Origin: Desulfovibrionales bacterium
Lineage (GTDB): Bacteria > Desulfobacterota > Desulfovibrionia > Desulfovibrionales > Desulfovibrionaceae
Length of the DNA stretch: 46,479 nucleotides
Direction: 5' to 3'
NCBI GenBank assembly: GCA_030156255.1
Contig: JASGMV010000031.1
Span: 1-46,479 of the forward strand
Shown: positions 3,515 to 22,879 of the stretch, one piece after another
How the letters are laid out: each line of letters begins with the position of its first letter
Numbering within the stretch: the stretch's first letter is position 1
Notes under the pieces: model-generated
The model's input: the letters and a program-made list of their open reading frames with translations, nothing else
Database searches by the model: none
Told to the model about the DNA's origin: nothing
Program-made: the position numbers and the translations under genes

Positions 3515-5664
3515 CAAAGCATCTCCAGGTAGTCTTCTATGATTACTTTCAGGCCGAAGCCCGGAAAGTTTACCTGGTACTTGTTCGGCGGCAAAAAAGC
3601 CACGATTTTCCCCGGACCGAAAATGCGGTGCCGGCACATGCCGAGGTCCTTGTTGCCCTGGCCGATCGCAGGCGAGGCGGCCGGCTGGATCCCCGGTTCG
3701 ATCCCGGGGTCCGGATCGGCCGAAGGCGGCGCCAGGGGTTTGATCGTCGGGGTGCGGCCGGATTCCCTCGCCAAGCCGCCGCCGATGGTTTCCCGGTACA
3801 CGTCCAGGCTCGCATAGGGAACGTCGCGCACAAAGGGGCTGAGCCGCGCGGGTTCGCTCATGGACTTGAAGCGATTCCACAGGCATTCGGGTGCGAACAT
3901 GGTCAGGGAGTCTTTGGCGCGGGTGCAGGCCACGTACATGAGCCGGCGTTCCTCCTCCATGTCGTCGGGCCGGTCCAGGGCCCGTTTCATGGGAAAGCGC
4001 TCCTCCACGAGGTCGATGAGGAGGACGGCGGAGAACTCCAGGCCCTTGGCCGAATGCACGGTGGTCAGGACCAATTCGTCTTCGGGATGGGACTCGCCTT
4101 CCTCGGGATCCAGGACCAGATCGGCCAAGAAATCGTCCAGGTCCTTGTAGGCGGCGCCGATCTGGGCCAGCTCCTCCAGTCCGGCCTGGCGGCGCGGATA
4201 GTCGTCCGGGAACATCTGCACCATGATGGGCTGGTAGAAGCCGATGACCCGGGAGAGCTTGGCCTGAAAATCCTTCAATCCGCGAATGGCGTCCAGCTCG
4301 GAGAACAGTTCGTCCAGCTGGGGGGTCTTCCTTCTGCGCTTGGTCAGCGCCTTTTCGTCGCCTTGGAGCGACTCCAGCGCGATTTTGCCGCAGGTCTTTT
4401 CCCCCACGCCCTTGATGTGCGCGGCGGCTCTTCGCCAGGCCAGGGCGTCTCCGGGATTGCGCACCAGGCGCAGGAAAGCGAGCACGTCCTTGACGTGGGC
4501 CGCCTCGTGAAAACGCACGCCTCCGTATTTTCGGAAGGGCAGTCCGGCCTTGGTCAGGGCCAGCTCCAGGGGGTAGGACTGGTAGCCGGCCCGGAACAGC
4601 ACCGCGATTTCGTGCAGGGGATAGGTCCGACGCAACTCGCGGATGCGCTCCAACACGCGGCCGGCCTGGCTCACGTCGCTCATGGTCCGGATGAGCCGGG
4701 GCGTTTCGCCCTCGGTGCGCTCGGTGTAGAGGCGTTTGTCGAATTTTTCCTTCGCCTCGGCCAAGATGGCGTTGGACACGTCCAGAATGGGTTGGGTGGA
4801 GCGGTAGTTGCGTTCCAGCCGCACGACCTTGGCGCCGGGAAATATCTTGGGGAAACCCAGGATGTTGGCTACGTCCGCTCCGCGGAAGGCGTAGATGGAT
4901 TGTGCGTCGTCGCCCACGGCCATGACTTCGCCGTCCTCGCCGGCCAGCAGCCTGACCAGCCGGGCCTGCACCTTGTTGGTGTCCTGGTATTCGTCCACCA
5001 TGATCTGGCGGAAGCGTTCGCGCAGCCGGTCGCGGAATTCCTGATGCTCCGTCAGCGCCTTCTCCAGTTCGAAAAGCAGGTCGTCGTAGTCGAGCAGGCC
5101 GTTGCCGGCTTTGAGCTTTTGGTAGCGCTCGGCGATTTTGCCCATGTCTTCGGCGTAGGGAAGCAGGTGGACGGCCTCGCGTCCCACCAGGTCGGGCAGT
5201 TCCAGCTCTTTGTTGCGCGACTTGCTGATGATTTCCTGCAGCGTGGATTTCTTGGGGAAGGATTTGTCGCCCTTGCCGAGCCCCAGCTCCTCCTTGGCCA
5301 TGCGCGTGATGTCTTCGGCGTCGGCCTTGTCGATGACCGTGAGTCCGGCCGGCCCTTGCCCCAGGGCGGCGAGCCGGCGGAGTTGGGCGAAGGCGAAGGA
5401 GTGGAAGGTGCCACCCACGGCCCGGCGCAGGCTCGACCCGAGCAGGGTCTCGGCCCGAGAGAGCATCTCGGCCGAGGCCTTGCGGGTGAAAGTCAGCAGC
5501 AGGATGCGCTCCGGGTCCACGCCGCCCTCCACCAGCCGGGCCAGGCGAAAGACGATGGTTCTGGTCTTGCCGCTGCCGGCGCCGGCGATGACCAGCAAGG
5601 GGCCGCCCTCGTGGCGAACCGCCTCCAACTGCCGTTCGTTGAGCAGTTGCTCGTAGTCGATCAT
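3514..5664 (-). CDS. uvrD: UvrD/PcrA/Rep-type superfamily I DNA helicase
   Basis: This 716-residue ATP-dependent 3'-5' helicase carries the SF1A motifs in order: the Q-motif and Walker A AGAGSGKTRT (27-36), motif II DEYQDTN, motif III GDDAQSIYAFRGAD, motif IV with RNYRSTQPIL, motif V TTVHSAKGLEFSAV and motif VI RRLMYVACTRAKD. The C-terminal 60 residues (CRHRIFGPGKIVAFLPPNKY) look like the Tudor-like domain that in PcrA/UvrD contacts RNA polymerase. Expected roles are nucleotide-excision repair, mismatch repair or clearing recombination intermediates. The ATG at 5664 overlaps the preceding gene's stop by 4 nt (ATGA), and MIDYEQLLNERQLEAV matches family N-termini. Whether it is the cell's UvrD, Rep or a paralogue cannot be decided from this window. 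Confidence 0.93.
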   Translation of the reverse strand: MIDYEQLLNERQLEAVRHEGGPLLVIAGAGSGKTRTIVFRLARLVEGGVDPERILLLTFTRKASAEMLSRAETLLGSSLRRAVGGTFHSFAFAQLRRLAALGQGPAGLTVIDKADAEDITRMAKEELGLGKGDKSFPKKSTLQEIISKSRNKELELPDLVGREAVHLLPYAEDMGKIAERYQKLKAGNGLLDYDDLLFELEKALTEHQEFRDRLRERFRQIMVDEYQDTNKVQARLVRLLAGEDGEVMAVGDDAQSIYAFRGADVANILGFPKIFPGAKVVRLERNYRSTQPILDVSNAILAEAKEKFDKRLYTERTEGETPRLIRTMSDVSQAGRVLERIRELRRTYPLHEIAVLFRAGYQSYPLELALTKAGLPFRKYGGVRFHEAAHVKDVLAFLRLVRNPGDALAWRRAAAHIKGVGEKTCGKIALESLQGDEKALTKRRRKTPQLDELFSELDAIRGLKDFQAKLSRVIGFYQPIMVQMFPDDYPRRQAGLEELAQIGAAYKDLDDFLADLVLDPEEGESHPEDELVLTTVHSAKGLEFSAVLLIDLVEERFPMKRALDRPDDMEEERRLMYVACTRAKDSLTMFAPECLWNRFKSMSEPARLSPFVRDVPYASLDVYRETIGGGLARESGRTPTIKPLAPPSADPDPGIEPGIQPAASPAIGQGNKDLGMCRHRIFGPGKIVAFLPPNKYQVNFPGFGLKVIIEDYLEML

Positions 5665-10861: not shown

Positions 10862-12373
10862 GTGAGCGAGGAGAAAACACGGCGGGCCATCCACTGGCCC
10901 AGCCTGCGATTCAAGATATTCGCCTTGCTGGTTGGTTTGGTGGTCGTCACCATGGCCGGCGCCGGGTTTACGCTTTGGTACACCAGCAAAACTCAGCAGC
11001 TTCTCGACTATATGATGGAGCGCGACATCTCGGCGCTTCTGGCGGCCCAGGGGTTGGAGAGTTCCTTGGTCATGCAAAAAGGGTACGCCACCTATTATTT
11101 CCTGAGCCGCGACCCCTCTTGGTTGGAGAAGCTGGAAGTCCACAATCGGGAATTTCAGAAATGGTTGGACCGCGCGCGGGACTCCACCTATCTCGACCAG
11201 TCGCGCGGAGTGCTGAACCGCATCGAATCCGCCTATCTCCATTACGCCCATTACCGCGATCAAGTGCTGGCTTTGTACAAAGCCGGCCGAAGCGAGGAGG
11301 GCGCGAAGCTGCACTGGGAGGTCCGGCAGCAGTTTTTGGACATCTACGGCCTCTGCGAGCAATACAAGCGCTTGCACGAAGAGAAAATGGTTCACGACAG
11401 CAAGGCGTTTCAAAAGAAAGGCCGCATGGTGACCTGGATGGCCTGGGCCGCCGCCCCGACGTCGGTTCTGCTGGGCCTGCTGTTGGCCTGGGTGCTGCTC
11501 AAGCAGGTGCTGGAGCCCGTCCGGAAACTCGCGGTGGGCGACGCCCGGTTGGAGGCCGGCGCCGTGGGCCTGCGCGACGAGGTGCAGGCGTTGCAAACGC
11601 GTATGCAGGGGCTCATGGACGACATGGACCAGACGCACATCCAGCTCAAGGAAAGCCGGGAGCACCTGCGACAGACCGAAAAACTGGCGCTGGTCGGCAA
11701 GCTGGCGGCCGGCGTGGCCCACAGCGTGCGCAATCCGTTGACTTCGGTGAAGATGCGGCTCTTCTCCCTGGAGCGCAGCCTGGACCTGGACGTCATGCAA
11801 AAGGAGGATTTCGAGGTCATCTCCGAGGAAATCCGCCACTTGGACACCATTATTCGCAACTTTCTGGAGTTCTCCAGGCCGCCCAAGCTCAAGACGCAGC
11901 GAGTCAGCCCGTCGGAAGTGGTGGACATGACGCTGCAACTCACGCGCCACCGGCTGGACTCCGCCGGCGTGGAGGTCCGGGTCCTTCGGGCGACGCCGTT
12001 GCCGGCCATCGAGATCGATCCCGAGCAGCTCAAGGAGGCGCTGGTCAATATTTTGATGAACGCCTGCGACGCCATGACCGGCGGCGGCGAAGTGCGCATC
12101 GTCGAGGAGATGGGGGTGGTGGAGCCGCAGGGCGAGGTGGCGATTTTGCGCATCAGCGACACCGGCCCGGGGATTCCGGACGAAATCAGGGAAGAGGTCT
12201 TTCAGCCGTTCTTCAGCACCAAGGAGGAAGGCACGGGGCTTGGGCTCGCCATCTCCAAACGCATTATGGAGGAGCATGGCGGCTGGCTTCATTTGACCCG
12301 GGCCGAGGGCGGCGGGGCCGCCTTCGTGCTGGCCATTCCCACCAAGGAGAAGTTGAGATGGCTGAGATCCTGA
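10862..12373 (+). CDS. Membrane sensor histidine kinase, NtrB-like catalytic core
   Basis: The 503-residue protein has TM1 at about 18-40, an extracytoplasmic helical domain (about 41-190, rich in aromatic and charged residues, no known family recognised), TM2 at about 191-213, a coiled linker, and a HisKA domain with phospho-acceptor His287 in GVAHSVRNPLTS. The HATPase domain follows, with the N box ILMNACDAM, DTGPGIPDE and GTGLGLAIS. The AHSVRNP form of the H box is typical of kinases paired with sigma-54 activators. I chose GTG 10862 because GGAGG (10851-10855) lies 6 nt upstream and the protein then starts cleanly. It overlaps the next gene by 16 nt, so the two form a cognate pair. The signal is unknown. 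Confidence 0.9.
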   Translation: MSEEKTRRAIHWPSLRFKIFALLVGLVVVTMAGAGFTLWYTSKTQQLLDYMMERDISALLAAQGLESSLVMQKGYATYYFLSRDPSWLEKLEVHNREFQKWLDRARDSTYLDQSRGVLNRIESAYLHYAHYRDQVLALYKAGRSEEGAKLHWEVRQQFLDIYGLCEQYKRLHEEKMVHDSKAFQKKGRMVTWMAWAAAPTSVLLGLLLAWVLLKQVLEPVRKLAVGDARLEAGAVGLRDEVQALQTRMQGLMDDMDQTHIQLKESREHLRQTEKLALVGKLAAGVAHSVRNPLTSVKMRLFSLERSLDLDVMQKEDFEVISEEIRHLDTIIRNFLEFSRPPKLKTQRVSPSEVVDMTLQLTRHRLDSAGVEVRVLRATPLPAIEIDPEQLKEALVNILMNACDAMTGGGEVRIVEEMGVVEPQGEVAILRISDTGPGIPDEIREEVFQPFFSTKEEGTGLGLAISKRIMEEHGGWLHLTRAEGGGAAFVLAIPTKEKLRWLRS

Positions 12374-13785
12374 TCGTGGACGACGACGGGCAGCTTCGAT
12401 CCAGTTTCGAGAAGCTGCTGACCGCGGAAGGCCACCTCGTTCGCACGGCCTCGTCCGGAGAAGCCGGTCTCGAAGCCGTGCAGGAGAGGATTCCGGACTT
12501 GGTGGTCATGGACGTGCGCATGCCCGGCATGGACGGGCTTGAAGCTTTCGAGGCCATGCACCGCATCGAGCCCCGGCTGCCCGTGGTCATCATGACCGCC
12601 TACGGCTCCACGGACACCGCCATCAAGGCCACCAAACTCGGAGCCTACGATTATATTCTCAAGCCTTTCGACATCCCGGACGTCCTGGAGCTCATCAGCC
12701 AGGCCCTGGAGGCCGGCCGGTTCATGCGCGCCAAAGTGGCGTTGACGGCCGCTCCGGGGGAGGAAGACGACAGTGAAGCGCTCATCGGCCAAAGCCGGGC
12801 CATGAATGAAGTCTACAAGTCCATCGGCCGGGTGGCCGGCACGGACGCGCTGGTCCTGATCCGAGGCGAATCCGGCACGGGCAAGGAGCTTGTGGCTCGC
12901 GCCATTTTTCAGCACAGCCAACGCTCCAAGCGGCCTTTTATGATAATCAATTGCGTGGCCATTCCAGACACGCTGCTGGAGAGCGAACTTTTCGGTTACG
13001 AGAAGGGCGCGTTCACCGGCGCGACCCAGCGCCGGATAGGGAAAATCGAGCAGGCCAACCACGGCGCCGTGTTTCTGGATGAAATCGGCGACATGCCCGT
13101 GAACATTCAGGCCAAGATTCTGCGCTTGCTTCAGGAGAAAAAGATCGAGCGCCTCGGTGGGCGCGAAACCATCGACGTGGACGTGCGGATCATCGCCGCC
13201 ACCAACCGGGACCTGGAGGCGGCCGTGGCCGAAGGCGCTTTCCGGGAGGACCTCTACTACCGGCTCAAGGTCGTCACCTTGACCATTCCTCCGCTCCGGG
13301 ACCGCAAAGAAGACATTCCGCAGCTGGCCAACTATTTCCTGCGCCGTTTCGCCAGGGACATGGACATGGATAATCCGGGGTTGACCAAGGAGGCCTTGGA
13401 GGCGCTCATGGAGTACAATTGGCCGGGCAACGTGCGGGAACTGGCCAATGCGTTGCAAAAAACGCTGGTTTTCAGCCGGGGCGGGGCCTTGGGCGGGCCG
13501 GACGTGCTCAAGGCCGTGGGAGACTCCAAAAACGGGTCGTGCCCGCTTGCGCCTTACAGCCCCGACGGGCCGCTCCGCGACTGGGTTCGCTCCTGCCTGG
13601 CCGCCCCCGGGGATTCGGCTTTCGACACCTGCATGGACCAGATCGGGCGGCTGGTCATCCGCGAGGCGCTGGAGATCACGGACGGCAACCGGACCCGGGC
13701 GGCCAAGCTTTTGGGACTATCCCGGCCCACTTTGTTGGCCAAGATCGAGAAATACGGCCTGCGCATCAAGGCGCAGATTTCCTGA
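12358..13785 (+). CDS. Sigma-54-dependent response regulator (NtrC family)
   Basis: The 475-residue activator has three domains. The receiver (1-120) has the acidic pair near residues 8-10, phospho-acceptor Asp52, Thr80 and Lys102. The central AAA+ domain (about 140-370) has Walker A GESGTGKE (170-177), the sigma-54 contact loop GAFTGA (217-222), Walker B GAVFLDEIG, and the WPGNVREL segment. The C-terminus is a Fis-type helix-turn-helix (NRTRAAKLLGLSRPTLLAKI). It should drive ATP-dependent opening of RNA polymerase-sigma-54 promoters when phosphorylated by the overlapping kinase. AAGGAG at 12344-12349 supports the ATG at 12358. A near-consensus sigma-54 promoter lies only 173 bp after the stop, in front of the next operon, making that operon the prime target. 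Confidence 0.95.
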   Translation: MAEILIVDDDGQLRSSFEKLLTAEGHLVRTASSGEAGLEAVQERIPDLVVMDVRMPGMDGLEAFEAMHRIEPRLPVVIMTAYGSTDTAIKATKLGAYDYILKPFDIPDVLELISQALEAGRFMRAKVALTAAPGEEDDSEALIGQSRAMNEVYKSIGRVAGTDALVLIRGESGTGKELVARAIFQHSQRSKRPFMIINCVAIPDTLLESELFGYEKGAFTGATQRRIGKIEQANHGAVFLDEIGDMPVNIQAKILRLLQEKKIERLGGRETIDVDVRIIAATNRDLEAAVAEGAFREDLYYRLKVVTLTIPPLRDRKEDIPQLANYFLRRFARDMDMDNPGLTKEALEALMEYNWPGNVRELANALQKTLVFSRGGALGGPDVLKAVGDSKNGSCPLAPYSPDGPLRDWVRSCLAAPGDSAFDTCMDQIGRLVIREALEITDGNRTRAAKLLGLSRPTLLAKIEKYGLRIKAQIS

Positions 13786-13853
13786 CGGCCGGGGCTCGCC
13801 TGGTTTCGTTTCCTGCGTCCCGTTAGGCCCCGCTATCGCTTGACGCTGTGTAA

Positions 13854-13886
13854 AAGATGCTGACACGCAGTCGGCGTCTTTTTTTT
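13854..13886 (+). terminator. Intrinsic terminator after the sigma-54 regulator
   Basis: AAGATGCTGAC (13854-13864) pairs with GTCGGCGTCTT (13870-13880): 11 bp with two G-U pairs, a 5-nt loop, and then six more T. This separates the two-component pair from the downstream operon, which therefore needs its own promoter. Confidence 0.85.
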
Positions 13887-13957
13887 ACCGCCATTCCTTC
13901 TTTTTATAAACTACATTTAAATTCAGTGTATTAGGATTGATCCTCCCCTCGGTCTCC

Positions 13958-13973
13958 TGGCCCGCTTCTTGCC
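13958..13973 (+). promoter_or_regulatory. Sigma-54 (RpoN) promoter for the 14017-21676 operon
   Basis: TGGCCCG, four bases, then TTGCC matches the -24/-12 consensus TGGCACG-N4-TTGCW at all but two positions, with the invariant GG and GC correctly spaced. Transcription would begin about 13985, 30 nt before the first ATG (14017). It lies between a strong terminator and the first gene, on the right strand, and next to a gene for a sigma-54 activator. The upstream AT-rich stretch (13905-13935) could hold activator sites. Confidence 0.75.
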
Positions 13974-14016
13974 TTTGAGCCTTTGTTCGCAGGTCTTCAT
14001 CAAGAGGTAAGAGGTC

Positions 14017-14397
14017 ATGCAGCGGGTTCTTGTTCTGGACCGCAATCCATATGTCCGGAGTTTTCTTCGCAGGTTGTTGGCCCAACGTCGTTTGGCGGTC
14101 CAAGAGGCGAAGAACGGCGCGGAGTTGTTGGCTGCGTTGGACTCGGACGCTTGTCCCCATTTGGTGGTGTACGACCCTGACGCTCCGGGCGCGCAAGGGG
14201 GGAGCCTTTTGCGAACCGTCCGCACCAAACGGCCGGGGCTCCACATCATTTTGCACGCCTACCAGTGCGATGAAACGGAACCCGAGGCTTCGGAGCTGGC
14301 CGCGGTCTGCGTGGAAAAATCCGCCGACCCCACGCCCCTTTTGACGACCGTGGACAGGCTGCTTAAACGGCGCGACGGACAAACGGGAGAGCTATGA
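14017..14397 (+). CDS. Degenerate single-domain response regulator
   Basis: The 126-residue protein has a CheY-like receiver fold only. The N-terminal acidic pair is reduced (LDRN at 7-10, only Asp8 kept). Asp53 sits at the phospho-acceptor site in VVYDPDAPG, the usual Thr/Ser position reads HAY (80-82), and Lys101 is present. Missing one Mg2+-binding acid and the switch Thr suggests altered or no phosphorylation, perhaps an adaptor. A GAGGT stretch lies upstream of the ATG. It is the first gene after the sigma-54 promoter and overlaps the sensor kinase by 4 nt (ATGA). It carries no output domain. Confidence 0.8.
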   Translation: MQRVLVLDRNPYVRSFLRRLLAQRRLAVQEAKNGAELLAALDSDACPHLVVYDPDAPGAQGGSLLRTVRTKRPGLHIILHAYQCDETEPEASELAAVCVEKSADPTPLLTTVDRLLKRRDGQTGEL

Positions 14398-16142
14398 GCC
14401 ACGAAGCTTCCTACAAAAGTCTCCGGCGCTCCATGATCCTGATGTTGATCCTTGTATCGCTGGCGCCGCTGGTGATGGTCTCGGCGGTGCTCGGCAATCG
14501 GTTCCATACTTCCTATAAGGAAAAGGCCCTCGCCCATCTCGACGAGGTGCTGCTCAAGCACAAACAGACCATCGACAGCTTTCTGGACGCCAAGGTCGCC
14601 GAAATTCGGGTCCTCGTCGATGTGACGCCATTCAAGGCGTTTTTCGATCCCCAAACTCTGGAGAGTCTGCTGCTCTCGCTTCAGGACCGGCACCACGGCG
14701 TTTTCGTCGATCTCGGGGTCGTGAACGCCGAAGGCGAGCAGGCGGCGTACGCCGGCCCCTTCCTCCTGGGAAGCGCCGATTACTCCCAGGCCCATTGGTT
14801 CCAGGCGGCGATGCGCCGCCAAGTGTACATCAGCGACGTGTTTCTCGGCGTGCGAGGGCTGCCGCACTTCATCGTGGCGGTGCGCAAGAAGTACGAGGGG
14901 CGAGATTGGATCGTCCGGTCCACCATCGATTTCGCGGCCTTCAACCGTCTGGTGGAGAACGTGCGCATCGGCGACACGGGGTTGGCGTTCATCGTCAACA
15001 AGGACGGCGAGTTCCAGACCAAACCCCGCATGGACATCTCGTCCGAGCTGCCGAAGCTGATGGCGCTCATCAAGAGTCGCGGAAAACCGGGCGCCGGGCG
15101 GTGGCTGTCCCGCGCCAAGGACGCCTCGGGCGTTTGGTCCTGCCTCTTCGAGAGTCCCTCCACGGGGCAGGAATACGTGGTGCTGATGACCGAACTGAAG
15201 GGCGGGGAGTGGACGTTGGTCTACCAGCAGACCGAGAGGGACGCCTTCCAGGATCTGTACCGCAGCCGGATCGCCGCCATCGTGATCGTTTTGCTCGGGG
15301 CGGCGGCTATCGTGGCCGCGGCCTTATACGTGTCGCAGCGCTTTGTGAACCACTTGCGGCGCCTCGACCGCGAGAAGGAGGTCCTGAACGAGCAGATGCT
15401 GGAGACGGGCAGATTGGCTTCGGTGGGTGAATTGGCCGCGGGCGTGGCCCATGAGATCAACAACCCGGTGGCCATCATGATGGAGGAGGCCGGCTGGGTG
15501 GAGGATCTGCTGGAAGACGAGAACCCTTGGGAGAACGAAGAGGAAATCCGGCGGGCGCTCTCCCAGATCAGGACGCAGGGCGGCCGCTGCCGCGAGATTA
15601 CCCACAAACTGTTGAGCTTCGCCCGCAAGATCGATCCCACGGTGGTGCTGTTGGACCTGAACCAGGCGGTGGAGGAAATCTCCGAACTCTCCGAACAACG
15701 GGCGCGTTACGCCGGTGTGCAGATCATTACCGACCTTGCGTCGGACTTGCCGGAGGTGCGGGCTTCCGCTTCGGAGCTGCAGCAGGTGCTGCTGAATCTC
15801 ATCAACAACGCCATCGACGCCATGGACGGCCGGGACGGGCGTCTGACCCTGACCACCCGCAAGGTCGGCGAGGACGTTCAGCTGGAAGTTGCCGACACCG
15901 GCCGGGGAATACCGGCCGCCAATCTCCAGCGCATTTTCGATCCGTTTTTCACCACCAAGCCGGTGGGCAAGGGAACGGGGCTTGGGCTGTCCATCTGCTA
16001 CGGGGTCATCAAAAAGATGGGCGGAGACATCACCGTTTCCAGCAAAGTGGATGCGGGCACGGTGTTCCGCATCCGCGTGCCCGGGGCCGAGGATACGCAC
16101 GTCCCGGCCGGGAAGGACGCGCAGAGCAGGACCTCGGCCTAA
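14394..16142 (+). CDS. Sensor histidine kinase with large periplasmic (Cache-like) domain
   Basis: The 582-residue protein has TM1 at about 14-34, a 255-residue periplasmic region whose [20 protein letters not shown] and [15 protein letters not shown] segments look like a double-Cache ligand domain, and TM2 at about 292-313. HisKA follows with His353 in [12 protein letters not shown], then HATPase with [17 protein letters not shown], and [17 protein letters not shown]. Cache domains usually sense small organic ligands outside the membrane. It should phosphorylate one or both response regulators just downstream. The Asp/Glu-rich insertion after the H box (about residues 363-378) is slightly unusual. 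Confidence 0.9.
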
Positions 16143-16160
16143 GGGACTGAGGAGGCGGCC

Positions 16161-16568
16161 ATGAACGGGAAGACGGCTCAGGACGGAATGTCTCGCATGT
16201 TGCGGGTGTTGATCGTGGACGACGAAGCGGGGTTTGTGGACGTGCTGCGCAAACGGTTGGCCCGGCGTGGCGTGAAGGTCCAGGCCGCATACTCCGGAAC
16301 CGAAGCCGTGCAGGCCATGCGTCGGCAGGAGTTCGACGCGGCCGTGGTGGATTTGAAGATGGAGGACATGGGCGGCATCGAGGTGCTGCAGGTCTTCCGC
16401 CGGATGGCGCCGGAAACGCCCGTGATCATGCTCACGGGCCACGGCTCCGAGGAGGCGGCCAGGGAAGGGCTCAAGTACGGGGCTTTCGACTATTTGTTGA
16501 AGCCCTGCGACATGGACGCCCTGCTGGCCAAGATACATGAGGCTGCAGGCCAAGGGGGCCGATCATGA
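16161..16568 (+). CDS. Single-domain response regulator (CheY-like)
   Basis: The 135-residue receiver has the acidic pair DDE at 20-22, phospho-acceptor Asp64 in AVVDLKM, Thr in IMLTGHG, and Lys in LLKPCD. There is no output domain, so it probably acts by protein contact or as a phosphorelay shuttle. GAGGAGG (16149-16155) lies 5 nt before the ATG, and a few extra N-terminal residues precede the fold. It overlaps the next receiver gene by 4 nt. Confidence 0.9.
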   Translation: MNGKTAQDGMSRMLRVLIVDDEAGFVDVLRKRLARRGVKVQAAYSGTEAVQAMRRQEFDAAVVDLKMEDMGGIEVLQVFRRMAPETPVIMLTGHGSEEAAREGLKYGAFDYLLKPCDMDALLAKIHEAAGQGGRS

Positions 16569-17002
16569 ACGAACACGCCATGAAGCTTTTGGTTGTGGAT
16601 GACGAGCGTCACTTCCTGGAGACTTTGGTCAAGCGTTTGGGACGAAGAGGATTTTCGGTCAGAGGGGCGGACTCTGGAGAACGCGCTTTGGAGGAAATGT
16701 CCGCCTCCCCGGCCGATGTCGTGGTGTTGGACGTCAAGATGCCCGGCATCTCGGGTCTGGAGACCTTGCAACGCATCAAGGCCGACTACCCTTTGACCGA
16801 GGTGGTCATGCTGACCGCCCATGCGGACATGGAGGCGGCGGCCGAGGGCATGGAGTTCGGGGCTTTCGACTATCTCATGAAGCCCATGGACATCGATGAG
16901 CTGGTCTACAAGATCGAAGACGCCTGGCGTCGCAGATCCCTGAGGGGGCTGAAGATTCAACAGATGAGAAGCCGCGCCCGGACTTCGCCGGACGAAACGT
17001 GA
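16565..17002 (+). CDS. Single-domain response regulator (CheY-like), second copy
   Basis: The 145-residue receiver has DDE at 12-14, Asp56 in VVLDVKMPG, Thr in VMLTAHA, and Lys in LMKPMD. A basic C-terminal tail follows (about 125-145, with RRRSLRG and MRSRAR), too short for a known DNA-binding domain. It resembles its neighbour (FGAFDYLMKP against YGAFDYLLKP), consistent with tandem duplication. ATGA overlap couples it to the preceding gene, and 72 nt separate it from the permease gene. Confidence 0.88.
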   Translation: MNEHAMKLLVVDDERHFLETLVKRLGRRGFSVRGADSGERALEEMSASPADVVVLDVKMPGISGLETLQRIKADYPLTEVVMLTAHADMEAAAEGMEFGAFDYLMKPMDIDELVYKIEDAWRRRSLRGLKIQQMRSRARTSPDET

Positions 17003-17074
17003 GCAGGGCTCTGACACAGGGCGTCCGGCGCGGTTGCGGAGTGCGTCAACTTTAACTTTAGATGGAGAACATGC

Positions 17075-18343
17075 ATGAAAGCCGCAAGAAGATTGTATGA
17101 CATGTTGATGTACGCCTCTGCGGCCCACGCTCGGTGGGATTACGAGGCATCCATGAACATTCTGAGAAGCCGCAAAAAGATGCTGATCATCTTGGCGCTG
17201 GCGGCGCCGGCCATTTTGGTGTCCATCGCCATGGCCGCGGATATTGACGTGCTGCCGGCGGCGTTGGGAGGCAAGGCGGCTTACAGTCCGGCCTATTACA
17301 CGCCGGGCATCTTTGTAGTCTCGATATTCATCGGGTTGGCCGCCGGCTTGATCACCGGCTGCATCGGAGCGGGAGGCGGCTTCATCATTACACCGGCGCT
17401 CATGAGCGCCGGCATCAAGGGCATCCTGGCCGTGGGAACCGACCTGTTCCACATCTTCGCCAAGGCGATCATGGGAACCGCCGTGCATAAAAAGCTCGGC
17501 AACGTCTCCGTGGGGCTCGCCGTAGCCTTCCTGGGAGGCTCCATCGTCGGCGTCATGGGCGGCGGCGTGGTCAACCGGGCCCTCTACGAAGCCAACCCGG
17601 TGCTCAGCGACACGTTCATCAGCGTGGTCTATGTGGTATTGTTGGGCTTCCTGGGCTTTTATTCTCTTGCGGACTTTCTGAAACAGCGCGGCAAGGACGA
17701 CGCCGGCGCCCACGGCGCCCACGGCGCCGAGCCCGAAGGGCAAAGCCTGCCTTCCAAGCTTCAATCGGCCCGCATCCCCCCCATGATTACCTTCGACACC
17801 GACCTGGTGCCCGGCGGCAAGCAGATATCCTGGGTGTTCGTAGCGTTTTGCGGCGTCATCGTGGGCGTCACCGCGGCCATCATGGGCGTGGGCGGCGGCT
17901 TTTTGACCTTCCCCATGTTCGTGTACGTCCTGGGCGTGTCCTCGTTCACCACTGTGGGCACGGACATCCTCCAGATCATCTTTACGGCCGGCTTCGCCGC
18001 CATCAGCCAATACGCCGTGTATGGATTCATCTTCTACACCCTGGCCATGGGCATGTTGCTGGGCTCTTTGCTGGGCATCCAGCTCGGGGCTTTGACCACC
18101 CGGGTCATCAAGGGCATCTACATCCGCGGCTTTTACGCCACGGCCATCCTGGCCGGTTTCCTGAACCGGCTCTTTGCATTGCCCGGAAAGCTCAACGAAA
18201 TGAAGCTGATCGAACTCTCCGAACCCACGGCCAAGATGTTGACCACGGCGGGCAACTGGGTCTTTTTCGCGGTGGTCGGCGTTTTCGCTGTGTGGGTCTT
18301 GTCCACATTCTTCAGCAAGATCAAGCTGCTCAAGGAGGCTTAG
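17075..18343 (+). CDS. TauE/SafE-family anion exporter-like permease
   Basis: The 422-residue integral membrane protein has about eight to nine TM segments. The duplicated TauE/SafE signature is visible: GLAAGLITGCIGAGGGFIITPAL in the first half (about 90-112) and an equivalent glycine-rich IMGVGGGFLTFPMF in the second. Family members move sulfite, sulfoacetate or other organosulfur and carboxylate anions. The substrate here is unknown. A cytoplasmic or periplasmic linker (about 205-235) holds an Ala-Gly-His repeat encoded by a 9-nt tandem repeat. The first 30 residues before the initial TM are not typical, and translation might instead start at Met27. GGAG at 17064-17067 supports 17075. It is followed after 3 nt by a small membrane protein gene. 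Confidence 0.85.
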   Translation: MKAARRLYDMLMYASAAHARWDYEASMNILRSRKKMLIILALAAPAILVSIAMAADIDVLPAALGGKAAYSPAYYTPGIFVVSIFIGLAAGLITGCIGAGGGFIITPALMSAGIKGILAVGTDLFHIFAKAIMGTAVHKKLGNVSVGLAVAFLGGSIVGVMGGGVVNRALYEANPVLSDTFISVVYVVLLGFLGFYSLADFLKQRGKDDAGAHGAHGAEPEGQSLPSKLQSARIPPMITFDTDLVPGGKQISWVFVAFCGVIVGVTAAIMGVGGGFLTFPMFVYVLGVSSFTTVGTDILQIIFTAGFAAISQYAVYGFIFYTLAMGMLLGSLLGIQLGALTTRVIKGIYIRGFYATAILAGFLNRLFALPGKLNEMKLIELSEPTAKMLTTAGNWVFFAVVGVFAVWVLSTFFSKIKLLKEA

Positions 18344-18346
18344 GCC

Positions 18347-19054
18347 ATGATTGTCCATGACAAAAAGCACTTTATCCTGGGCTCCGTGATGGCGGTGTCG
18401 TTCCTCATCGCATTGAGCTTCATGTTCACGCCCCATTTCGGCGGCGTGAACGCCTTCCACGCATCGGACCGGTTGTTCAACACCATCGCCAAGGGCTCCA
18501 CGTATTATATGCCGGCTCTGCAGGAACAGATCAAAGCCTTTCCCGAGGACGAGATCGACGTGACCTTGCACCGGGGCAACGAGAAAATGGCCGCCTTGCA
18601 GGCGATTTTGGCCGCCAAGGCCGGTTTTACCGCCGTTCCTTCGCCGGAAGGCCTGAAGCTTCAGGGCAAGCTGAACGATCTGTTGACGGCGGCTGTCCGG
18701 GATTCCGACGACATGTTCTACAACAAGGGCGATGAGGTCAGCGCCCGTTACGGCATGGAGCCCAAGCAGGCCATGTTCGTGTGGTGGAGCCTGTGCAAGG
18801 ATTTGGAGAACTCCTTGAAGCAGAGGAAAGACTTCAAGGCCGCCAAGCTGGTCCACGAAGTCCAGGCCCGCGGCGTCGAGGTGGGCTACAACTTCTACGG
18901 TATCGAACCGGAAAGCGCCTCCAGCCGGATCGGCGCGTTGTCCTTTGCCTTGGTGTTCTATGTCGTGTATACTATCTGGTGGGGATTCGCCCTGTTCTTT
19001 CTCTCGGAAGGCATCGGGCTGCAAATGAAGTCCGGTGGTAAGAAGGAAGTCTAA
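18347..19054 (+). CDS. Two-TM membrane protein of unknown function, TauE-associated
   Basis: The 235-residue protein has an N-terminal TM (about 9-29, FILGSVMAVSFLIALSFMF), a hydrophilic domain of about 160 residues with no cysteine cluster or recognised motif except a single Cys (WWSLCKDLENSL), and a C-terminal TM (about 198-220, SFALVFYVVYTIWWGFALFF). With two TMs the domain is probably periplasmic. The ribosome site GGAGG lies inside the end of the permease gene, and only 3 nt separate them, so the two products are probably made together. I recognise no family. It could be an accessory or ligand-capturing subunit of the permease. Confidence 0.75.
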   Translation: MIVHDKKHFILGSVMAVSFLIALSFMFTPHFGGVNAFHASDRLFNTIAKGSTYYMPALQEQIKAFPEDEIDVTLHRGNEKMAALQAILAAKAGFTAVPSPEGLKLQGKLNDLLTAAVRDSDDMFYNKGDEVSARYGMEPKQAMFVWWSLCKDLENSLKQRKDFKAAKLVHEVQARGVEVGYNFYGIEPESASSRIGALSFALVFYVVYTIWWGFALFFLSEGIGLQMKSGGKKEV

Positions 19055-19078
19055 CAGAACGGAAGATAAGGCGGGAAT

Positions 19079-21676
19079 GTGATCCGAGCGCTGATATCCC
19101 GCCTCCTGGCCGCCCTGGGATGGGGAGATGCATCCTCGTCCCGGGGCGTCGCCGTGGAGGAGCTCCAGGCCGAGTTTCAGGCCCGTTACCATCATTTCAA
19201 ACTGTTGCTGTCGGCCAACAGCGAGGCCTTGGAGGCCATGACCCTGCTGGAGGAGGCCCTGCACGGGCAGACTCCTTTCGGCATGCATTTTCTGAGAGCC
19301 ACCCTGACTAGGCTCAGTTCCTCCGTTTCCCGCATCATCCACCATCTGGAGGCTATCGCCCCGGGGAAATACACGGCCTTGCTTCACCAGTTCCAGTCCA
19401 TCCGGCATGAAGTTTCGCCATTGCTGGCTTCGAACGCCGAACCGCCCTCCGGACCGTTGACGCTGCCGTTGTCCTCCATTTCCCGAAACGACGTGGACCG
19501 GGTGGGCGCGAAAATGGCCAACCTCGGCGAATTGCGCAATCGCCTGGACATCCCTGTCCCCGACGGCTTCACGGCCACCGCCGCCGCCTATGCGGCCTTT
19601 CTGTCTCACGACGGGCTCGGCGGCGAACTGGATCGCATGATCCAGGCCCGCAGCATGGACGGGCCTGAGGCCCTGCACAGCCTGAGCTCCTCCCTGCAGG
19701 AGCGGATCATCATGGCCGAGCTGCCTTCCGAAATTTCCGACGCCATCATGGCCGAATACGAGGCTCTGGCGTCCAGGCTGGCGTCTGCGCCCCGCTTGGC
19801 CGTCCGCTCCAGCGCCTTGGGCGAGGACGAGCCCGGTTTGAGCTTTGCCGGGCAGTACCGGTCCGAACTCAACGTAGGGCGCGACAACCTGCTGCTGGCC
19901 TACAAGGAGGTCGTGGCGGCCAAGTACAGTCCCCAGGCCATGAGCTACCGGCTGAACAAGGGCGTGCGCGACGAGGACGTGCTCATGTGCGCGGGGTTTC
20001 TGTGCATGGTTCAGGCGGCGGCCGGGGGCGTGGCCTACTCGCGCAATCCGGCGTCCATGAGCGATACGGCCATGGTGGTCAACGCCGCTTTGGGGCTGCC
20101 AAAGTCCGTGGTGGACGGCGCCGCCCCGTCGGACATGTACGTGGTCAAACGCAAGGGTGGCCTGCACATCCAGTCCATGACCATCGCCGACAAGAACATG
20201 CGGCAGGTTTGCCGGGAAGGCGAAGGGATTTTCCGCCAGGAGGTCGGCGCCGAGGAGGCGATGCGACCGGCCCTCGCCGAGGAGGAGATTCTCGAATTGG
20301 CCGAGTTGGTGTTGCGGCTGGAGCAATACTTCGGTCGGCCGCAGGACGTGGAGTGGGCTCTGGATCAGGATCGCCGCATGGTCTTTTTGCAGTGCCGCCC
20401 CTTGTACGGCGGCCCGCGCGCCCCCTTCCGGGGCGACAAGGGGGTCCCGGCGAACGCCCAGCGCCTGGCCTCCGGCGTTTGCGCCAGTCCCGGCGTGGCC
20501 GCAGGTCCCGTGGTCTTTGTGAAAAAAGACGCCGACGCCTTGAGTTTTCCCGAAGGAGGCGTTCTGGTGCTGGGGCATCCGCTGCCGCGATTCGCCTCTC
20601 TGCTGGGGCGGGCGGCGGCCGTGGCCGCGGAGCAGGGGGCCATTACCGGCCATTTGGCCAATGTGGCCCGGGAGTTTCAGGTCCCTGCCGTGTTCGGGGC
20701 CCCAGGAGTGATGGGCGCCGTCCGGGAGGGCGAGGAGGTGACGGTGGACGCCGACGCCGGCCTGGTTTTGCGGGGCCGGGTGGAGCGGTTGCTCGAAAGC
20801 AGGCCCAAGGCCCGCAACGTCATGGAGGGGAGCTCCGTGCTGGCTGTTTTGAGGAGCATTACGCCTCACGTTTTGCCTCTTCATCTGGTGGACCCCGACG
20901 CCCCTGAGTTCAAACCCGCCTGGTGCAAGACCTTCCACGACATCACGCGCTTTTGCCATGAGAAGGCCGTGGTGGAGATGTTCCGGTTCGGGCGGGAGCA
21001 GAATTTCCCGGAGCGGCGGGCCCGGCAGCTGGTGACCGACGCGCCCATGCAGTTCTGGGTGCTGGACCTGGACGACGGTCTGGCCGACGGCGAATGGAAG
21101 CCCACCGTGCACATCAGCGACGTGCGCTCCATCCCCATGCTGGCCCTGTGGCGCGGCATGTCGGCCATTCCCTGGCCCGGGCCTCCGCGGGTCAATCCCA
21201 GGGGATTTTTGGCCGTGCTCTACGAGGCCTCCGCCAACCCGGAATTGGACCCGTCCATGGCGTCGTCCTACAACACTCGCAACTATTTTATGGTCGCCCG
21301 CAGCTTCGTGAGCCTGCAGTCCCGGTTCGGCTTCCACTTCAGTTCGGTGGAGGCGTTGGTCAGCGACCGGCGCAGCGAGAACTACGCCAGTTTCCGGTTC
21401 AAAGGCGGCGCGGCCGACGCCGGCCGGCGCACCGCCCGCGTGCGGCTGATCGGACAGTTGCTCGAAGAGCAGGATTTCCGTATCCGGCTGCGCGAGGATT
21501 GCCTGGAGGCCCGCCTCGACGGCCGGCCGGCCGCTGAAATGGAGAAGCGGCTCATGGCCTTGGGCTATCTGATCATCCACACCCGCCAGTTGGACATGAT
21601 CATGAACAACCCGAACGAGGCCGCGGCGCAACGAACCCGCATCCGGAGCGATCTGGACCAGTTGTTTCAGTCCTGA
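19079..21676 (+). CDS. PEP-synthase-like phosphotransferase lacking the PEP-binding barrel
   Basis: The 865-residue protein begins with a helical region (1-130) of unknown type. An ATP-grasp domain like PEP synthase/PPDK follows (about 135-445): RVGAKMANLGEL, LAVRSSALGEDEPGLSFAGQY and DVEWALDQDRRMVFLQCRP. Next is a swivelling phosphohistidine domain (about 463-566) with QGAITGHLANVAREF, His525 in the place of the phosphorylated His. The C-terminal TIM barrel of PEP synthase is absent. In its place are 300 residues (about 570-865) of no family I know, with His/Arg/Tyr-rich segments. The layout resembles the ATP, His and acceptor scheme of rifampin phosphotransferase but with a different acceptor domain. 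A GTG start at 19079 is used. The 24-nt gap to the previous gene indicates the same operon. The substrate is unknown. Confidence 0.85.
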   Translation: MIRALISRLLAALGWGDASSSRGVAVEELQAEFQARYHHFKLLLSANSEALEAMTLLEEALHGQTPFGMHFLRATLTRLSSSVSRIIHHLEAIAPGKYTALLHQFQSIRHEVSPLLASNAEPPSGPLTLPLSSISRNDVDRVGAKMANLGELRNRLDIPVPDGFTATAAAYAAFLSHDGLGGELDRMIQARSMDGPEALHSLSSSLQERIIMAELPSEISDAIMAEYEALASRLASAPRLAVRSSALGEDEPGLSFAGQYRSELNVGRDNLLLAYKEVVAAKYSPQAMSYRLNKGVRDEDVLMCAGFLCMVQAAAGGVAYSRNPASMSDTAMVVNAALGLPKSVVDGAAPSDMYVVKRKGGLHIQSMTIADKNMRQVCREGEGIFRQEVGAEEAMRPALAEEEILELAELVLRLEQYFGRPQDVEWALDQDRRMVFLQCRPLYGGPRAPFRGDKGVPANAQRLASGVCASPGVAAGPVVFVKKDADALSFPEGGVLVLGHPLPRFASLLGRAAAVAAEQGAITGHLANVAREFQVPAVFGAPGVMGAVREGEEVTVDADAGLVLRGRVERLLESRPKARNVMEGSSVLAVLRSITPHVLPLHLVDPDAPEFKPAWCKTFHDITRFCHEKAVVEMFRFGREQNFPERRARQLVTDAPMQFWVLDLDDGLADGEWKPTVHISDVRSIPMLALWRGMSAIPWPGPPRVNPRGFLAVLYEASANPELDPSMASSYNTRNYFMVARSFVSLQSRFGFHFSSVEALVSDRRSENYASFRFKGGAADAGRRTARVRLIGQLLEEQDFRIRLREDCLEARLDGRPAAEMEKRLMALGYLIIHTRQLDMIMNNPNEAAAQRTRIRSDLDQLFQS

Positions 21677-21960: not shown

Positions 21961-22267
21961 TCATATGAAAAATTTTCATGATTTCGAGATGTTCGGAGCT
22001 GGCGTGTCACGATGGCTCGCTGGACGCCGAGGAAGTGGTTGCCTGAAAAAAAGGCGGATCGAACATCAGTCCGCATGGTGATGGCTACAATCAGGCGGGG
22101 AGCGTATCCGGCGAAGGCGTCTTGATCGGCGCCGCCTGCAAATCCGGAAGCCGACCGCGGTCGACGGCCCGCCTTCTTGCTTTGTGAACGTCGAAGAGGA
22201 GCATCGTGTTGTGCAACGCTGTAGTGAAATGGCCCGCGGCCGGAAGGCGGGGAGGTTGGATTCTGTG

Positions 22268-22879
22268 ATGGCGTCTGCTGCGCACTCCGACGCGGCCCTC
22301 GACTCCATGCGAAGGCTGATCAACGGCGGCGTCGCCCGGGCGGCCGGCATGCTCAATCAAATGACGGCCTCCCATGTTGATCTCGCCGCGTCCGAAGTGA
22401 GCCTGCTGGCGTCCGACAAGCGCTGGTGGGAGAATTACTGTCTCGAAGACGTTATTTCCGCAGTGCGGCTGGAGTTCAGCGGCTCCGCCGAAGGGGCCGC
22501 ATGGTTGATTTTTCCACCCAGAAGCTCCGGCCAGTTGGTGAGTTGCTTGATCGGCGAGCGCATCATGGATACCGAGGACATGGACACCTTGCGGCTTGGG
22601 GCGCTCCAGGAAGTCGGCAACATCGTGTTGAACGGCGCCGTGAGTTCTCTCGCGGGGGTCTTGGGCGGCCGCATCGAGTACATGCCCCCGGACTATTGCG
22701 AAGGGTCTTTGGAGCGTCTGCTCCGAGCCTGCCGCGCAGTCCCCGGCGGCGCGCTGTTTTTGGGACGTATTTCCTACAACGTGGATCGGCCGGGCGTCGC
22801 CGGCGATATCCTGTTACTCTTTCAACTGGGAGCATTCGACAAATTTCAAAGCGGCGTCGGCGCTTCGCTCAGCCAGTGA
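22268..22879 (+). CDS. CheC/CheX-like phosphatase-family protein
   Basis: The 203-residue protein matches the CheC pattern. The first half has LDSMRRLINGGVARAAGMLNQM, the second half LGALQEVGNIVLNGAVSSLAGVLG, and in both the conserved E/N positions lie on the helix that in CheC/CheX dephosphorylates CheY-P (EVGNIVLNG keeps E and N; the first half is less complete). The expected role is response-regulator dephosphorylation. I prefer ATG 22268 (or GTG 22265) since GGGGAGG at 22249-22255 precedes it and family proteins begin close to this point. GTG 22211 and GTG 22184 are alternatives. No chemotaxis genes lie nearby. The next gene is a diguanylate cyclase. Confidence 0.75.
   Translation: MASAAHSDAALDSMRRLINGGVARAAGMLNQMTASHVDLAASEVSLLASDKRWWENYCLEDVISAVRLEFSGSAEGAAWLIFPPRSSGQLVSCLIGERIMDTEDMDTLRLGALQEVGNIVLNGAVSSLAGVLGGRIEYMPPDYCEGSLERLLRACRAVPGGALFLGRISYNVDRPGVAGDILLLFQLGAFDKFQSGVGASLSQ

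What the first reader, a model, noticed from the sequence alone, without database searches (positions are those of the whole stretch)
13958..21676. Possible undescribed sigma-54-controlled phosphorelay, transporter and dikinase system
One strand carries a near-consensus sigma-54 promoter, a degenerate receiver, a Cache-type kinase, two receivers without output, a TauE-type permease, an unknown two-TM protein and a barrel-less PEP-synthase-like enzyme, mostly with overlapping or few-base gaps. A sigma-54 activator pair lies immediately upstream. None of the receivers has an output domain, so signalling may act directly on the transporter or the phosphotransferase.
Basis: partly seen in the sequence, partly recalled or inferred. 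Interest (0 to 1): 0.75.

Follow-up and report, generated by a model that had tools for sequence, protein, structure and literature searches.

The report
Sulfate-reducer anion transporter with signalling genes
A switchable set of genes, shared by many sulfate-breathing bacteria, joins a membrane transporter and its partner protein to a local signalling chain and an unusual phosphate-transferring enzyme, and probably controls how a sulfur salt enters the cell.

Summary
Window 13840-21676 carries an enhancer, a sigma-54 promoter and seven tightly packed genes: pseudo-receiver, dCache histidine kinase, two receivers, TauE, a two-TM protein ("TM2") and a PEP-synthase-like enzyme without its barrel. 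A kinase/NtrC-type activator pair lies upstream. The order is conserved beyond Desulfovibrionales.

New here: (1) TauE of this subfamily and TM2 are one unit: all 35 TauE copies at 58% identity or more in 59 relative genomes lie within 64 nt of TM2, and one distant pair is fused. (2) In 178 phylum genomes, 42 of 43 TM2 carriers have dsrA and 41 of 43 aprA; TM2 occurs in 1 of 85 dsrA-negative genomes. Six carriers outside the phylum all have dsrA. This ties the transporter to dissimilatory sulfate reduction. (3) An enhancer motif lies about 120 nt above the promoter in many loci. (4) The enzyme family keeps its phosphotransfer histidine, has an unmatched C-terminal domain, and its paralogues sit near signalling genes.

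Closest precedent: the published Desulfovibrio "nitrate cluster" (TauE, receiver, dikinase-like enzyme), where mutants in several parts become nitrate resistant. Best reading: sigma-54-controlled sulfur-oxyanion transporter, gated by local receivers and the dikinase. Gating is inferred. New variant of a known kind.

The parts
10862..12373 (+). Sensor histidine kinase of the activator pair (HisKA, HATPase_c; weak 4HB_MCP/CHASE3 sensor matches below cut-off); ORF listed from 10628, start probably GTG 10862
   Evidence: Pfam; homologues mostly begin at residue 73-93; GTG read
12358..13785 (+). NtrC-type sigma-54 activator: receiver, AAA+ with GAFTGA, Fis-type HTH
13840..13864 (+). Enhancer (UAS) TTGACGCTGTGTAAAAGATGCTGAC, consensus TTTACA-N3-TGTAAAA-N4-CTGACA
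   Evidence: 0 mismatches to the pattern, none in 100 shuffles; score >=15 of 19 in 18 of 28 loci, window included, against 0.7% of random stretches
13852..13886 (+). Rho-independent terminator of the activator operon, overlapping the enhancer
   Evidence: 13-bp stem plus U tract, -20.8 kcal/mol, z -3.27 for 13836-13892
13958..13972 (+). Sigma-54 promoter TGGCCCGCTTCTTGC, 59 nt before the first gene
14017..14397 (+). RR1, stand-alone pseudo-receiver (phospho-Asp and Lys kept, acidic pair D to R, no Thr/Ser)
   Evidence: Pfam 7.9e-10; R in 13 of 15 relatives
14394..16142 (+). HKc, membrane histidine kinase with dCache_1 sensor
   Evidence: Pfam; orthologue (>=45% id) upstream of TauE in 23 of 50 loci with room
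16161..16568 (+). RR2, stand-alone receiver, phosphorylation residues intact
16565..17002 (+). RR3, stand-alone receiver next to TauE, phosphorylation residues intact
   Evidence: receiver within 550 nt of TauE in 49 of 64 loci with room
17075..18343 (+). TauE/TSUP permease of a distinct subfamily with about 78 extra N-terminal residues
   Evidence: PF01925 121 bits; other TauE matches in the relatives are 38% identical or less and, apart from the distant pairs in G007 and G027:C44, align only from residue 65 or later
18347..19054 (+). TM2: two-TM protein with a periplasmic alpha/beta domain (TM 6-26, domain 36-183, TM 191-223); transporter partner
   Evidence: AlphaFold mean pLDDT 91.9; within 64 nt of all 35 subfamily TauE copies; distant fusion
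19079..21676 (+). Dikinase-like phosphotransferase: helical N-domain, ATP-grasp about 124-443, swivelling His domain (His525) to about 579, unmatched C-terminal domain 580-865, no PEP/pyruvate barrel

Best explanation
A sigma-54-controlled operon for a two-subunit anion transporter (TauE plus TM2) that brings a sulfur oxyanion, most likely sulfate, into the cell for dissimilatory sulfate reduction, with its own post-translational control. Proposed steps: (1) the upstream kinase phosphorylates the NtrC-type activator, which binds the TTTACA-N3-TGTAAA/CTGACA enhancer and opens the sigma-54 promoter (sites strongly supported by conservation; that this activator is the binder is inferred from its position). 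(2) TauE and TM2 form the carrier (strongly supported by linkage and a fusion). (3) Its substrate belongs to sulfate respiration (supported by co-occurrence; direction and exact ion inferred). (4) The dCache kinase senses a periplasmic ligand and charges RR2 and RR3, with the pseudo-receiver RR1 as adaptor (inferred). (5) Charged receivers switch the dikinase-like enzyme, which uses ATP to charge His525 and passes phosphate to an acceptor bound by its C-terminal domain, so setting transporter activity (inferred from linkage and from nitrate-cluster genetics).
For: Promoter: 24 of 64 against 2.8%. Enhancer: 18 of 28 against 0.7%, including 6 of 9 loci not used to draw the consensus (one of these six, L146, off position); 18 of the 20 best sites start 113-124 nt above the promoter. 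One other site within 1 mismatch in the own genome. TauE-TM2: 35 of 35; 78 of 80 named loci, the other two with TM2 at the contig start; one fusion. TM2 against dsrA 42 of 43, p=1.6e-13; against aprA 41 of 43, p=7e-18; within dsrA-positive genomes 40 of 72 with aprA against 2 of 21 without, p=1.4e-4; 6 of 6 carriers outside the phylum by record title have dsrA. Receivers next to TauE intact in 48 of 53. Receivers and enzyme co-occur. Enzyme active-site residues invariant in 46 sequences and kept in 64-65 of 66 paralogues. Published: isolated transposon mutants in TauE (DVU0251), the hypothetical gene (DVU0250), receiver (DVU0247) and dikinase-like gene (DVU0246) all grew equally with and without 100 mM nitrate, and G20 mutants of the cluster are said to be mildly sick on thiosulfate (PMC4001038).
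Against: No biochemistry. TM2 is absent from 51 of 93 dsrA-positive genomes, so it is not required for sulfate reduction. TM2 carriers are not enriched for lack of SulP (19 of 41 aprA-positive carriers have SulP, 10 of 32 non-carriers; p=0.23; SulP counted at E<1e-20), so 'the' sulfate transporter is not shown. No fusion of a receiver to the enzyme or TauE among the fetched ORFs (165 enzyme ORFs, some the same gene fetched twice). The TauE N-terminal extension is kept where receivers and enzyme are missing, so it is not a receiver-specific dock. Ten of 60 loci count as receiver or enzyme alone (one of them, L081, has a 39.9% identical enzyme just under my cut). The own genome shows aprA but no dsrA, and dsrB only as a weak match, an unexplained exception. 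In the nitrate cluster the pooled D. vulgaris DVU0250 mutant had low fitness (-5.82) against the isolated mutant's resistance, and transposon polarity is not excluded in what I read.
Confidence: 0.5

Rival explanations
1. The receivers and dCache kinase only tune transcription: they act as phosphate sinks or cross-talk partners for the upstream kinase/activator pair, and the dikinase-like enzyme does ordinary metabolism. The transporter is controlled only by its amount.
For: Activator pair and conserved enhancer. Stand-alone receivers acting as phosphate sinks are known (recalled). Some loci have TauE-TM2 with a sigma-54-like site upstream and no local receivers or enzyme (L099, L120).
Against: Receivers stay next to TauE and the enzyme, and RR-enzyme pairs also occur downstream of TM2 (L138, L140). 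In 59 loci that I chose, 26 of 68 enzyme genes have a receiver within 300 nt and 61 of 68 some signalling gene within 3 kb. In the nitrate cluster, receiver and enzyme mutants share the transporter-mutant phenotype (PMC4001038).
Confidence: 0.25
2. TauE-TM2 is an exporter (sulfite, sulfide-related or toxic oxyanion) protecting sulfate reducers, not an importer.
For: The family name comes from a proposed sulfite exporter (discussed in PMC4287615, passages). Universal stress protein genes are common near loci with a reduced gene set (10 of 105 neighbours scanned).
Against: Loss of the related nitrate-cluster TauE protects from nitrate, as expected if it lets the anion in (PMC4001038). Within dsrA-positive genomes TM2 follows aprA (40 of 72 against 2 of 21), i.e. 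sulfate rather than sulfite use. Neighbouring anion carriers of CitMHS (5), Na_sulph_symp (3) and PHO4 (2) type.
Confidence: 0.25
3. The dikinase-like enzyme phosphorylates the transported solute or another small molecule after entry (like rifampin phosphotransferase acting on a small acceptor), and signalling merely switches this metabolic step.
For: Best structural matches over 124-568 are rifampin phosphotransferase and PEP synthase (Z 40.5 and 39.1). The C-terminal domain holds a conserved set of polar residues that looks like a binding or active site (D621, R624, H627, R749, H753, R787, D807, R836, D839; each in 61-65 of 66 paralogues).
Against: One to fourteen matches per genome in the 56 of 59 genomes that have any, in varied signalling contexts, fit a regulatory enzyme better than one pathway step.
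Confidence: 0.3

Closest known systems
Desulfovibrio 'nitrate cluster' DVU0251-DVU0245 / Dde_0597-Dde_0605 (PMC4001038; passages and section 14 read)
   Same: TauE-type permease, small hypothetical protein, histidine kinase, receiver-only protein and barrel-less PPDK-like enzyme in one cluster; several parts share one mutant phenotype.
   Different: Has a PtxB-like binding protein and a phosphatase gene. In unnamed relatives with a TauE-RR-enzyme cluster of that shape, the gene after TauE is a DUF4881 protein in L164 (5e-92) and weakly, under the cut-off, in L148 and L162 (L155's was not scanned). Their TauE is 31-32% identical to ours. The DVU and Dde proteins themselves were not compared.
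Sigma-54 regulome of D. vulgaris Hildenborough (PMC4641369; passages and section 5 read)
   Same: Nine sigma-54 operons carry TSUP or PSE transporters; two-component sigma-54 activators with nearby targets.
   Different: No receiver/dikinase logic or TauE-TM2 pair is described in the parts read.
Rifampin phosphotransferase / PEP synthase / PPDK
   Same: ATP-grasp and swivelling His domains, catalytic residues kept.
   Different: No PEP/pyruvate barrel; own helical N-domain and unmatched C-terminal domain; domain order ATP-grasp, His, C-terminal.
TSUP (TauE/SafE) family, PF01925
   Same: Two TSUP halves with conserved glycine motifs.
   Different: Extra N-terminal 78 residues and a constant partner protein.

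Membership tests
TSUP / TauE-SafE (PF01925) | Match over the Pfam cut-off | tested here: met
   121 bits, cut-off 32.6
TSUP / TauE-SafE (PF01925) | Transport of a sulfur-containing anion | not testable with these tools
   Only co-occurrence with dsrA and aprA
PEP synthase / PPDK | ATP-grasp domain with catalytic residues | tested here: met
   PPDK_N 5e-82; K145, R243, R291, D423, E425, Q438, R440 invariant in 46 sequences; their roles are recalled from PPDK
PEP synthase / PPDK | Swivelling phosphohistidine | tested here: met
   His525 aligned with the His of solved PEP synthases; 65 of 66 paralogues
PEP synthase / PPDK | PEP/pyruvate-binding TIM barrel | tested here: not met
   Pfam gives PPDK_N, PEP-utilizers and one weak unrelated hit under its cut-off; C-terminal 291 aa give no credible PDB sequence match (best E 1.7). 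Hence not filed as PEP synthase
NtrC-type enhancer-binding proteins | Receiver, AAA+ with GAFTGA, Fis-type HTH | tested here: met
   GAFTGA in the translation
Sigma-54-dependent operon | -24/-12 promoter with upstream enhancer, conserved | tested here: met
Desulfovibrio nitrate cluster | TauE, HK, receiver-only protein, barrel-less dikinase-like enzyme | tested here: met
   against the gene list of PMC4001038
Desulfovibrio nitrate cluster | PtxB-like binding protein and phosphatase gene in the cluster | tested here: not met
   The seven genes in 13786-21676 are accounted for by other domains or, for TM2, none
Canonical response-regulator receiver (RR1) | Two acidic residues, phospho-Asp, Thr/Ser, Lys | tested here: not met
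   R in the acidic pair and no Thr/Ser in the window's RR1
Canonical response-regulator receiver (RR2, RR3) | Two acidic residues, phospho-Asp, Thr/Ser, Lys | tested here: met

The most novel reading that the evidence does not exclude
The barrel-less dikinase is a new kind of two-component output: a stand-alone receiver switches an ATP-driven phosphohistidine enzyme that phosphorylates a protein target, here the TauE-TM2 carrier or its receivers, so that sulfur-oxyanion entry is gated by phosphorylation. The family (one to fourteen matches in 56 of 59 genomes of the order searched) would be a general signalling layer of sulfate reducers.
Probability: 0.25. Interest if true: 0.85.

Novelty: new variant of a known kind. 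Interest (0 to 1): 0.62.

Why it matters
How sulfate reducers bring in their electron acceptor, and how they regulate that step, is not settled; the comparative study read here says that predictions of TSUP function in these organisms are not feasible (PMC5840216, passages). This work names a TSUP subfamily with a constant partner that follows the sulfate-reduction genes across phyla, gives its likely regulator and enhancer, and links it to a multi-copy phosphohistidine enzyme family whose role can be tested directly. It also offers a frame for the published but unexplained nitrate-resistance cluster, which bears on nitrate treatment of souring oil wells.

Tried and rejected
Chance or strain-specific order: rejected; the order recurs in the 80 named loci (best 80 of 479 relatives, so biased to the closest). 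TauE N-terminal extension as a receiver dock: rejected, kept also where receivers and enzyme are absent. Fusions of receiver and enzyme: none among 165 enzyme ORFs of the fetched loci. SulP replacement by TauE-TM2: no significant pattern. A wider regulon: one further enhancer-like site within 1 mismatch (G000:C63:85337) lies in a region with a ThyX-like gene and no sigma-54 promoter that I could see; with 2 mismatches the genome has 3 sites against 2 for the reversed control pattern. TM2 fold: Foldseek on PDB gave no match at E<=0.001. Enzyme residues 580-865: no credible PDB match by sequence, and barely tested by structure because the first domains fill the list. A downstream CheC/CheX-like gene as receiver phosphatase: no homologue appeared in the neighbourhood tables, so treated as incidental. 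I wondered whether this TauE is the 'clade B' TSUP of PMC5840216; not tested, because those proteins were not fetched. Two papers on perchlorate and nitrate resistance were not held.

Limits: the 178 phylum genomes are not independent (TM2 carriers span 21 families and 28 genera). dsrA and aprA are counted over the family cut-off; 'negative' means below it. The promoter score is my own weighting. The enhancer consensus was drawn by eye from the 19 regions, then scored on 28 loci: of the 37 with a promoter score of 13 or more, those at 15.5 or more, less L068, a near-copy of L067. The 59 paralogue loci were picked by me from the list, across genomes and identities, away from TM2, not at random. 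Of 143 neighbour proteins listed, 105 were scanned. The six outside-phylum carriers were picked by record title. Statements that the system is not in print rest on searches of an open-licence library only.

Full report
What is there. The seven-gene block and the activator pair are real. From the 5' side: a kinase (probably GTG 10862 to 12373) and an NtrC-type activator with GAFTGA (12358-13785); a terminator whose DNA also holds an enhancer (13840-13886); a sigma-54 promoter (13958-13972); pseudo-receiver RR1; dCache kinase HKc; receivers RR2 and RR3; TauE; TM2; and the dikinase-like enzyme. Gaps within the block are 72 nt or less.

Is it more than chance? The promoter alone says little. Conservation makes the case. 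A scan with a TM2 alignment found 479 relatives in the genome collection and kept the best 80, most of them in records titled as Desulfobacterota-type organisms and a few in Myxococcota-, Nitrospirae- and Firmicutes-type MAGs. The promoter scored 16 or more of 17 in 24 of 64 upstream regions, the window included, against 2.8% of random stretches. Reading the regions above 19 of these promoters showed TTTACA-N3-TGTAAAA-N4-CTGACA. At a score of 15 of 19 or more it is found in 18 of 28 loci against 0.7% of controls, and in 6 of the 9 loci not used to see it (L146 off position); of the 20 best sites, 18 start 113-124 nt above the promoter. In the own genome one other site has 1 mismatch or fewer, so the activator looks local; that this activator binds the site is inferred from its position.

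The transporter unit. In 59 relative genomes TM2 was found in 35. The same search with TauE gives 35 places at 58% identity or more, all within 64 nt of TM2; the other TauE matches are 38% or less and, apart from the distant pairs in G007 and G027:C44, align only from residue 65 or later. The G027:C44 pair is a single open frame, TauE followed by a TM2 domain at 46 bits (L066). AlphaFold gives TM2 a confident model: one helix, a periplasmic alpha/beta domain, one helix (mean pLDDT 91.9), with no PDB relative at E<=0.001. I infer that TM2 is a transporter subunit.

What it serves. In a phylum sample of 178 genomes, TM2 occurs in 43, dsrA over its cut-off in 93, and aprA over its cut-off in 73. 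Of the 43, 42 have dsrA and 41 have aprA (p=1.6e-13 and 7e-18); the dsrA exception is the own genome, which has aprA but no dsrA and only a weak dsrB match in its 106 contigs. The aprA exceptions are G095 (fragments only) and G226. Among dsrA-positive genomes TM2 is in 40 of 72 with aprA and 2 of 21 without (p=1.4e-4). Six carriers outside the phylum, picked by record title, all have dsrA. TM2 is missing from 51 of 93 dsrA-positive genomes, so it is one option among several. SulP presence does not explain which. Neighbours of loci with a reduced gene set include Usp (10), CBS (8), CitMHS (5), Na_sulph_symp (3) and PHO4 (2) among 105 proteins scanned of 143 listed. This points to sulfate, or another anion of sulfate respiration, as the substrate; import is my inference.

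The signalling parts. Receivers next to TauE keep all phosphorylation residues (48 of 53 nearest, 28 of 29 second, 16 of 18 third), whereas the receiver before HKc has R in the acidic pair in 13 of 15 and the full set in 1 of 15. Receivers and enzyme occur together in 43 of 60 loci with room, neither in 7, one alone in 10 (p=0.001); one of the ten, L081, has an enzyme just under my identity cut.

The enzyme. It has PPDK_N and PEP-utilizers domains and no barrel. The model (mean pLDDT 84.7) matches rifampin phosphotransferase and PEP synthase (Z 40.5 with 421 aligned at 3.2 A over 124-566, and 39.1 with 381 aligned at 5.0 A over 126-568). His525 aligns with the phosphohistidine of PEP synthases. 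In 46 operon-linked sequences the ATP-site residues and His525 are invariant. In 66 paralogues at 30-50% identity His525 is kept in 65, and D621, R624, H627, R749, H753, R787, D807, R836 and D839 in 61 to 65. The family is present in 56 of 59 relative genomes with one to fourteen matches each (weak matches may include true PEP synthases). In 59 loci that I chose, 26 of 68 genes have a receiver within 300 nt on the same strand, 12 a sigma-54 activator within 300 nt, and 61 some signalling gene within 3 kb; 7 have none. The own genome is rich in receivers (150 matches scored, of 188 candidates; 24 of the 150 lie in frames of 200 aa or less), so part of this is background. Assuming about 3,400 genes, I estimate that roughly 1% of random genes would have a lone receiver so close; no random-gene control was run.

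Precedent. PMC4001038 (passages and section 14 read) describes the 'nitrate cluster' of D. vulgaris and D. alaskensis: TauE, a hypothetical protein, PtxB, kinase, receiver, PPDK-like enzyme and phosphatase. Isolated transposon mutants of DVU0246, DVU0247, DVU0250 and DVU0251 grew equally with and without 100 mM nitrate, and the authors suggest a leaky thiosulfate transporter. The pooled D. vulgaris data disagree for DVU0250 (-5.82), the DVU0245 mutant stayed sensitive, and polarity is not excluded in what I read. Clusters of that shape in unnamed relatives (TauE, 1.5-1.8 kb, receiver, enzyme; L148, L155, L162, L164), with a DUF4881 protein after TauE in L164 and weakly in L148 and L162, are a sister design. 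At L114, and in part at L097 and L118, related modules sit side by side with ours. PMC4641369 (passages and section 5) reports nine sigma-54 operons with TSUP or PSE transporters and no data on their substrates. PMC5701242 (passages) lists a sigma-54 activator and a 'pyruvate phosphate dikinase' with neighbouring locus tags, both lowered by NO.

Mechanism and certainty. Transcription by the activator at the sigma-54 promoter: about 0.9. TauE-TM2 as one carrier: about 0.85. A sulfur oxyanion of sulfate respiration as substrate: about 0.65. Receivers and enzyme gating the carrier after translation: about 0.5. The target of the phosphoryl group is unknown; it could be a protein or a small molecule.

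Verdict. A real, widely conserved and mostly uncharacterised system; a new variant of a published kind (nitrate-cluster-like TSUP modules), with a possibly new type of signalling output in the dikinase family.

Noticed in passing
own genome G000 (106 contigs): aprA is present (1079 bits) but no dsrA, and dsrB only as a weak non-specific match, in a 99.3% complete assembly whose sampled family members have dsrA; assembly gap or true loss not resolved.
   Followed up: partly
22184-22879: CheC/CheX-like gene about 500 bp downstream of the operon; could act on receivers, but no homologue appeared beside related operons in the neighbourhood tables.
   Followed up: partly
13840-13886: The enhancer of the transporter operon overlaps the terminator of the activator operon, so the DNA site and the RNA hairpin share bases.
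   Followed up: yes
L175, L177, L178, L181-L184, L192: A third arrangement: TauE of about 345 aa near and opposite to a sigma-54 activator that directly precedes a dikinase-like gene.
   Followed up: no
L191 (own genome C29) 3869-5583: Another TauE (322 aa) paired with an Alph_Pro_TM (PF09608) protein beside a Usp gene and a dikinase-like gene: TSUP branches may each have their own small partner (TM2, DUF4881, Alph_Pro_TM).
   Followed up: partly
L163 5530-8160: One dikinase-like paralogue has Asn in place of the phosphohistidine in the alignment, perhaps an inactive pseudo-enzyme.
   Followed up: no
L066 9408-12146: Natural TauE-TM2 fusion with a long Pro/Ala-rich tail.
   Followed up: yes
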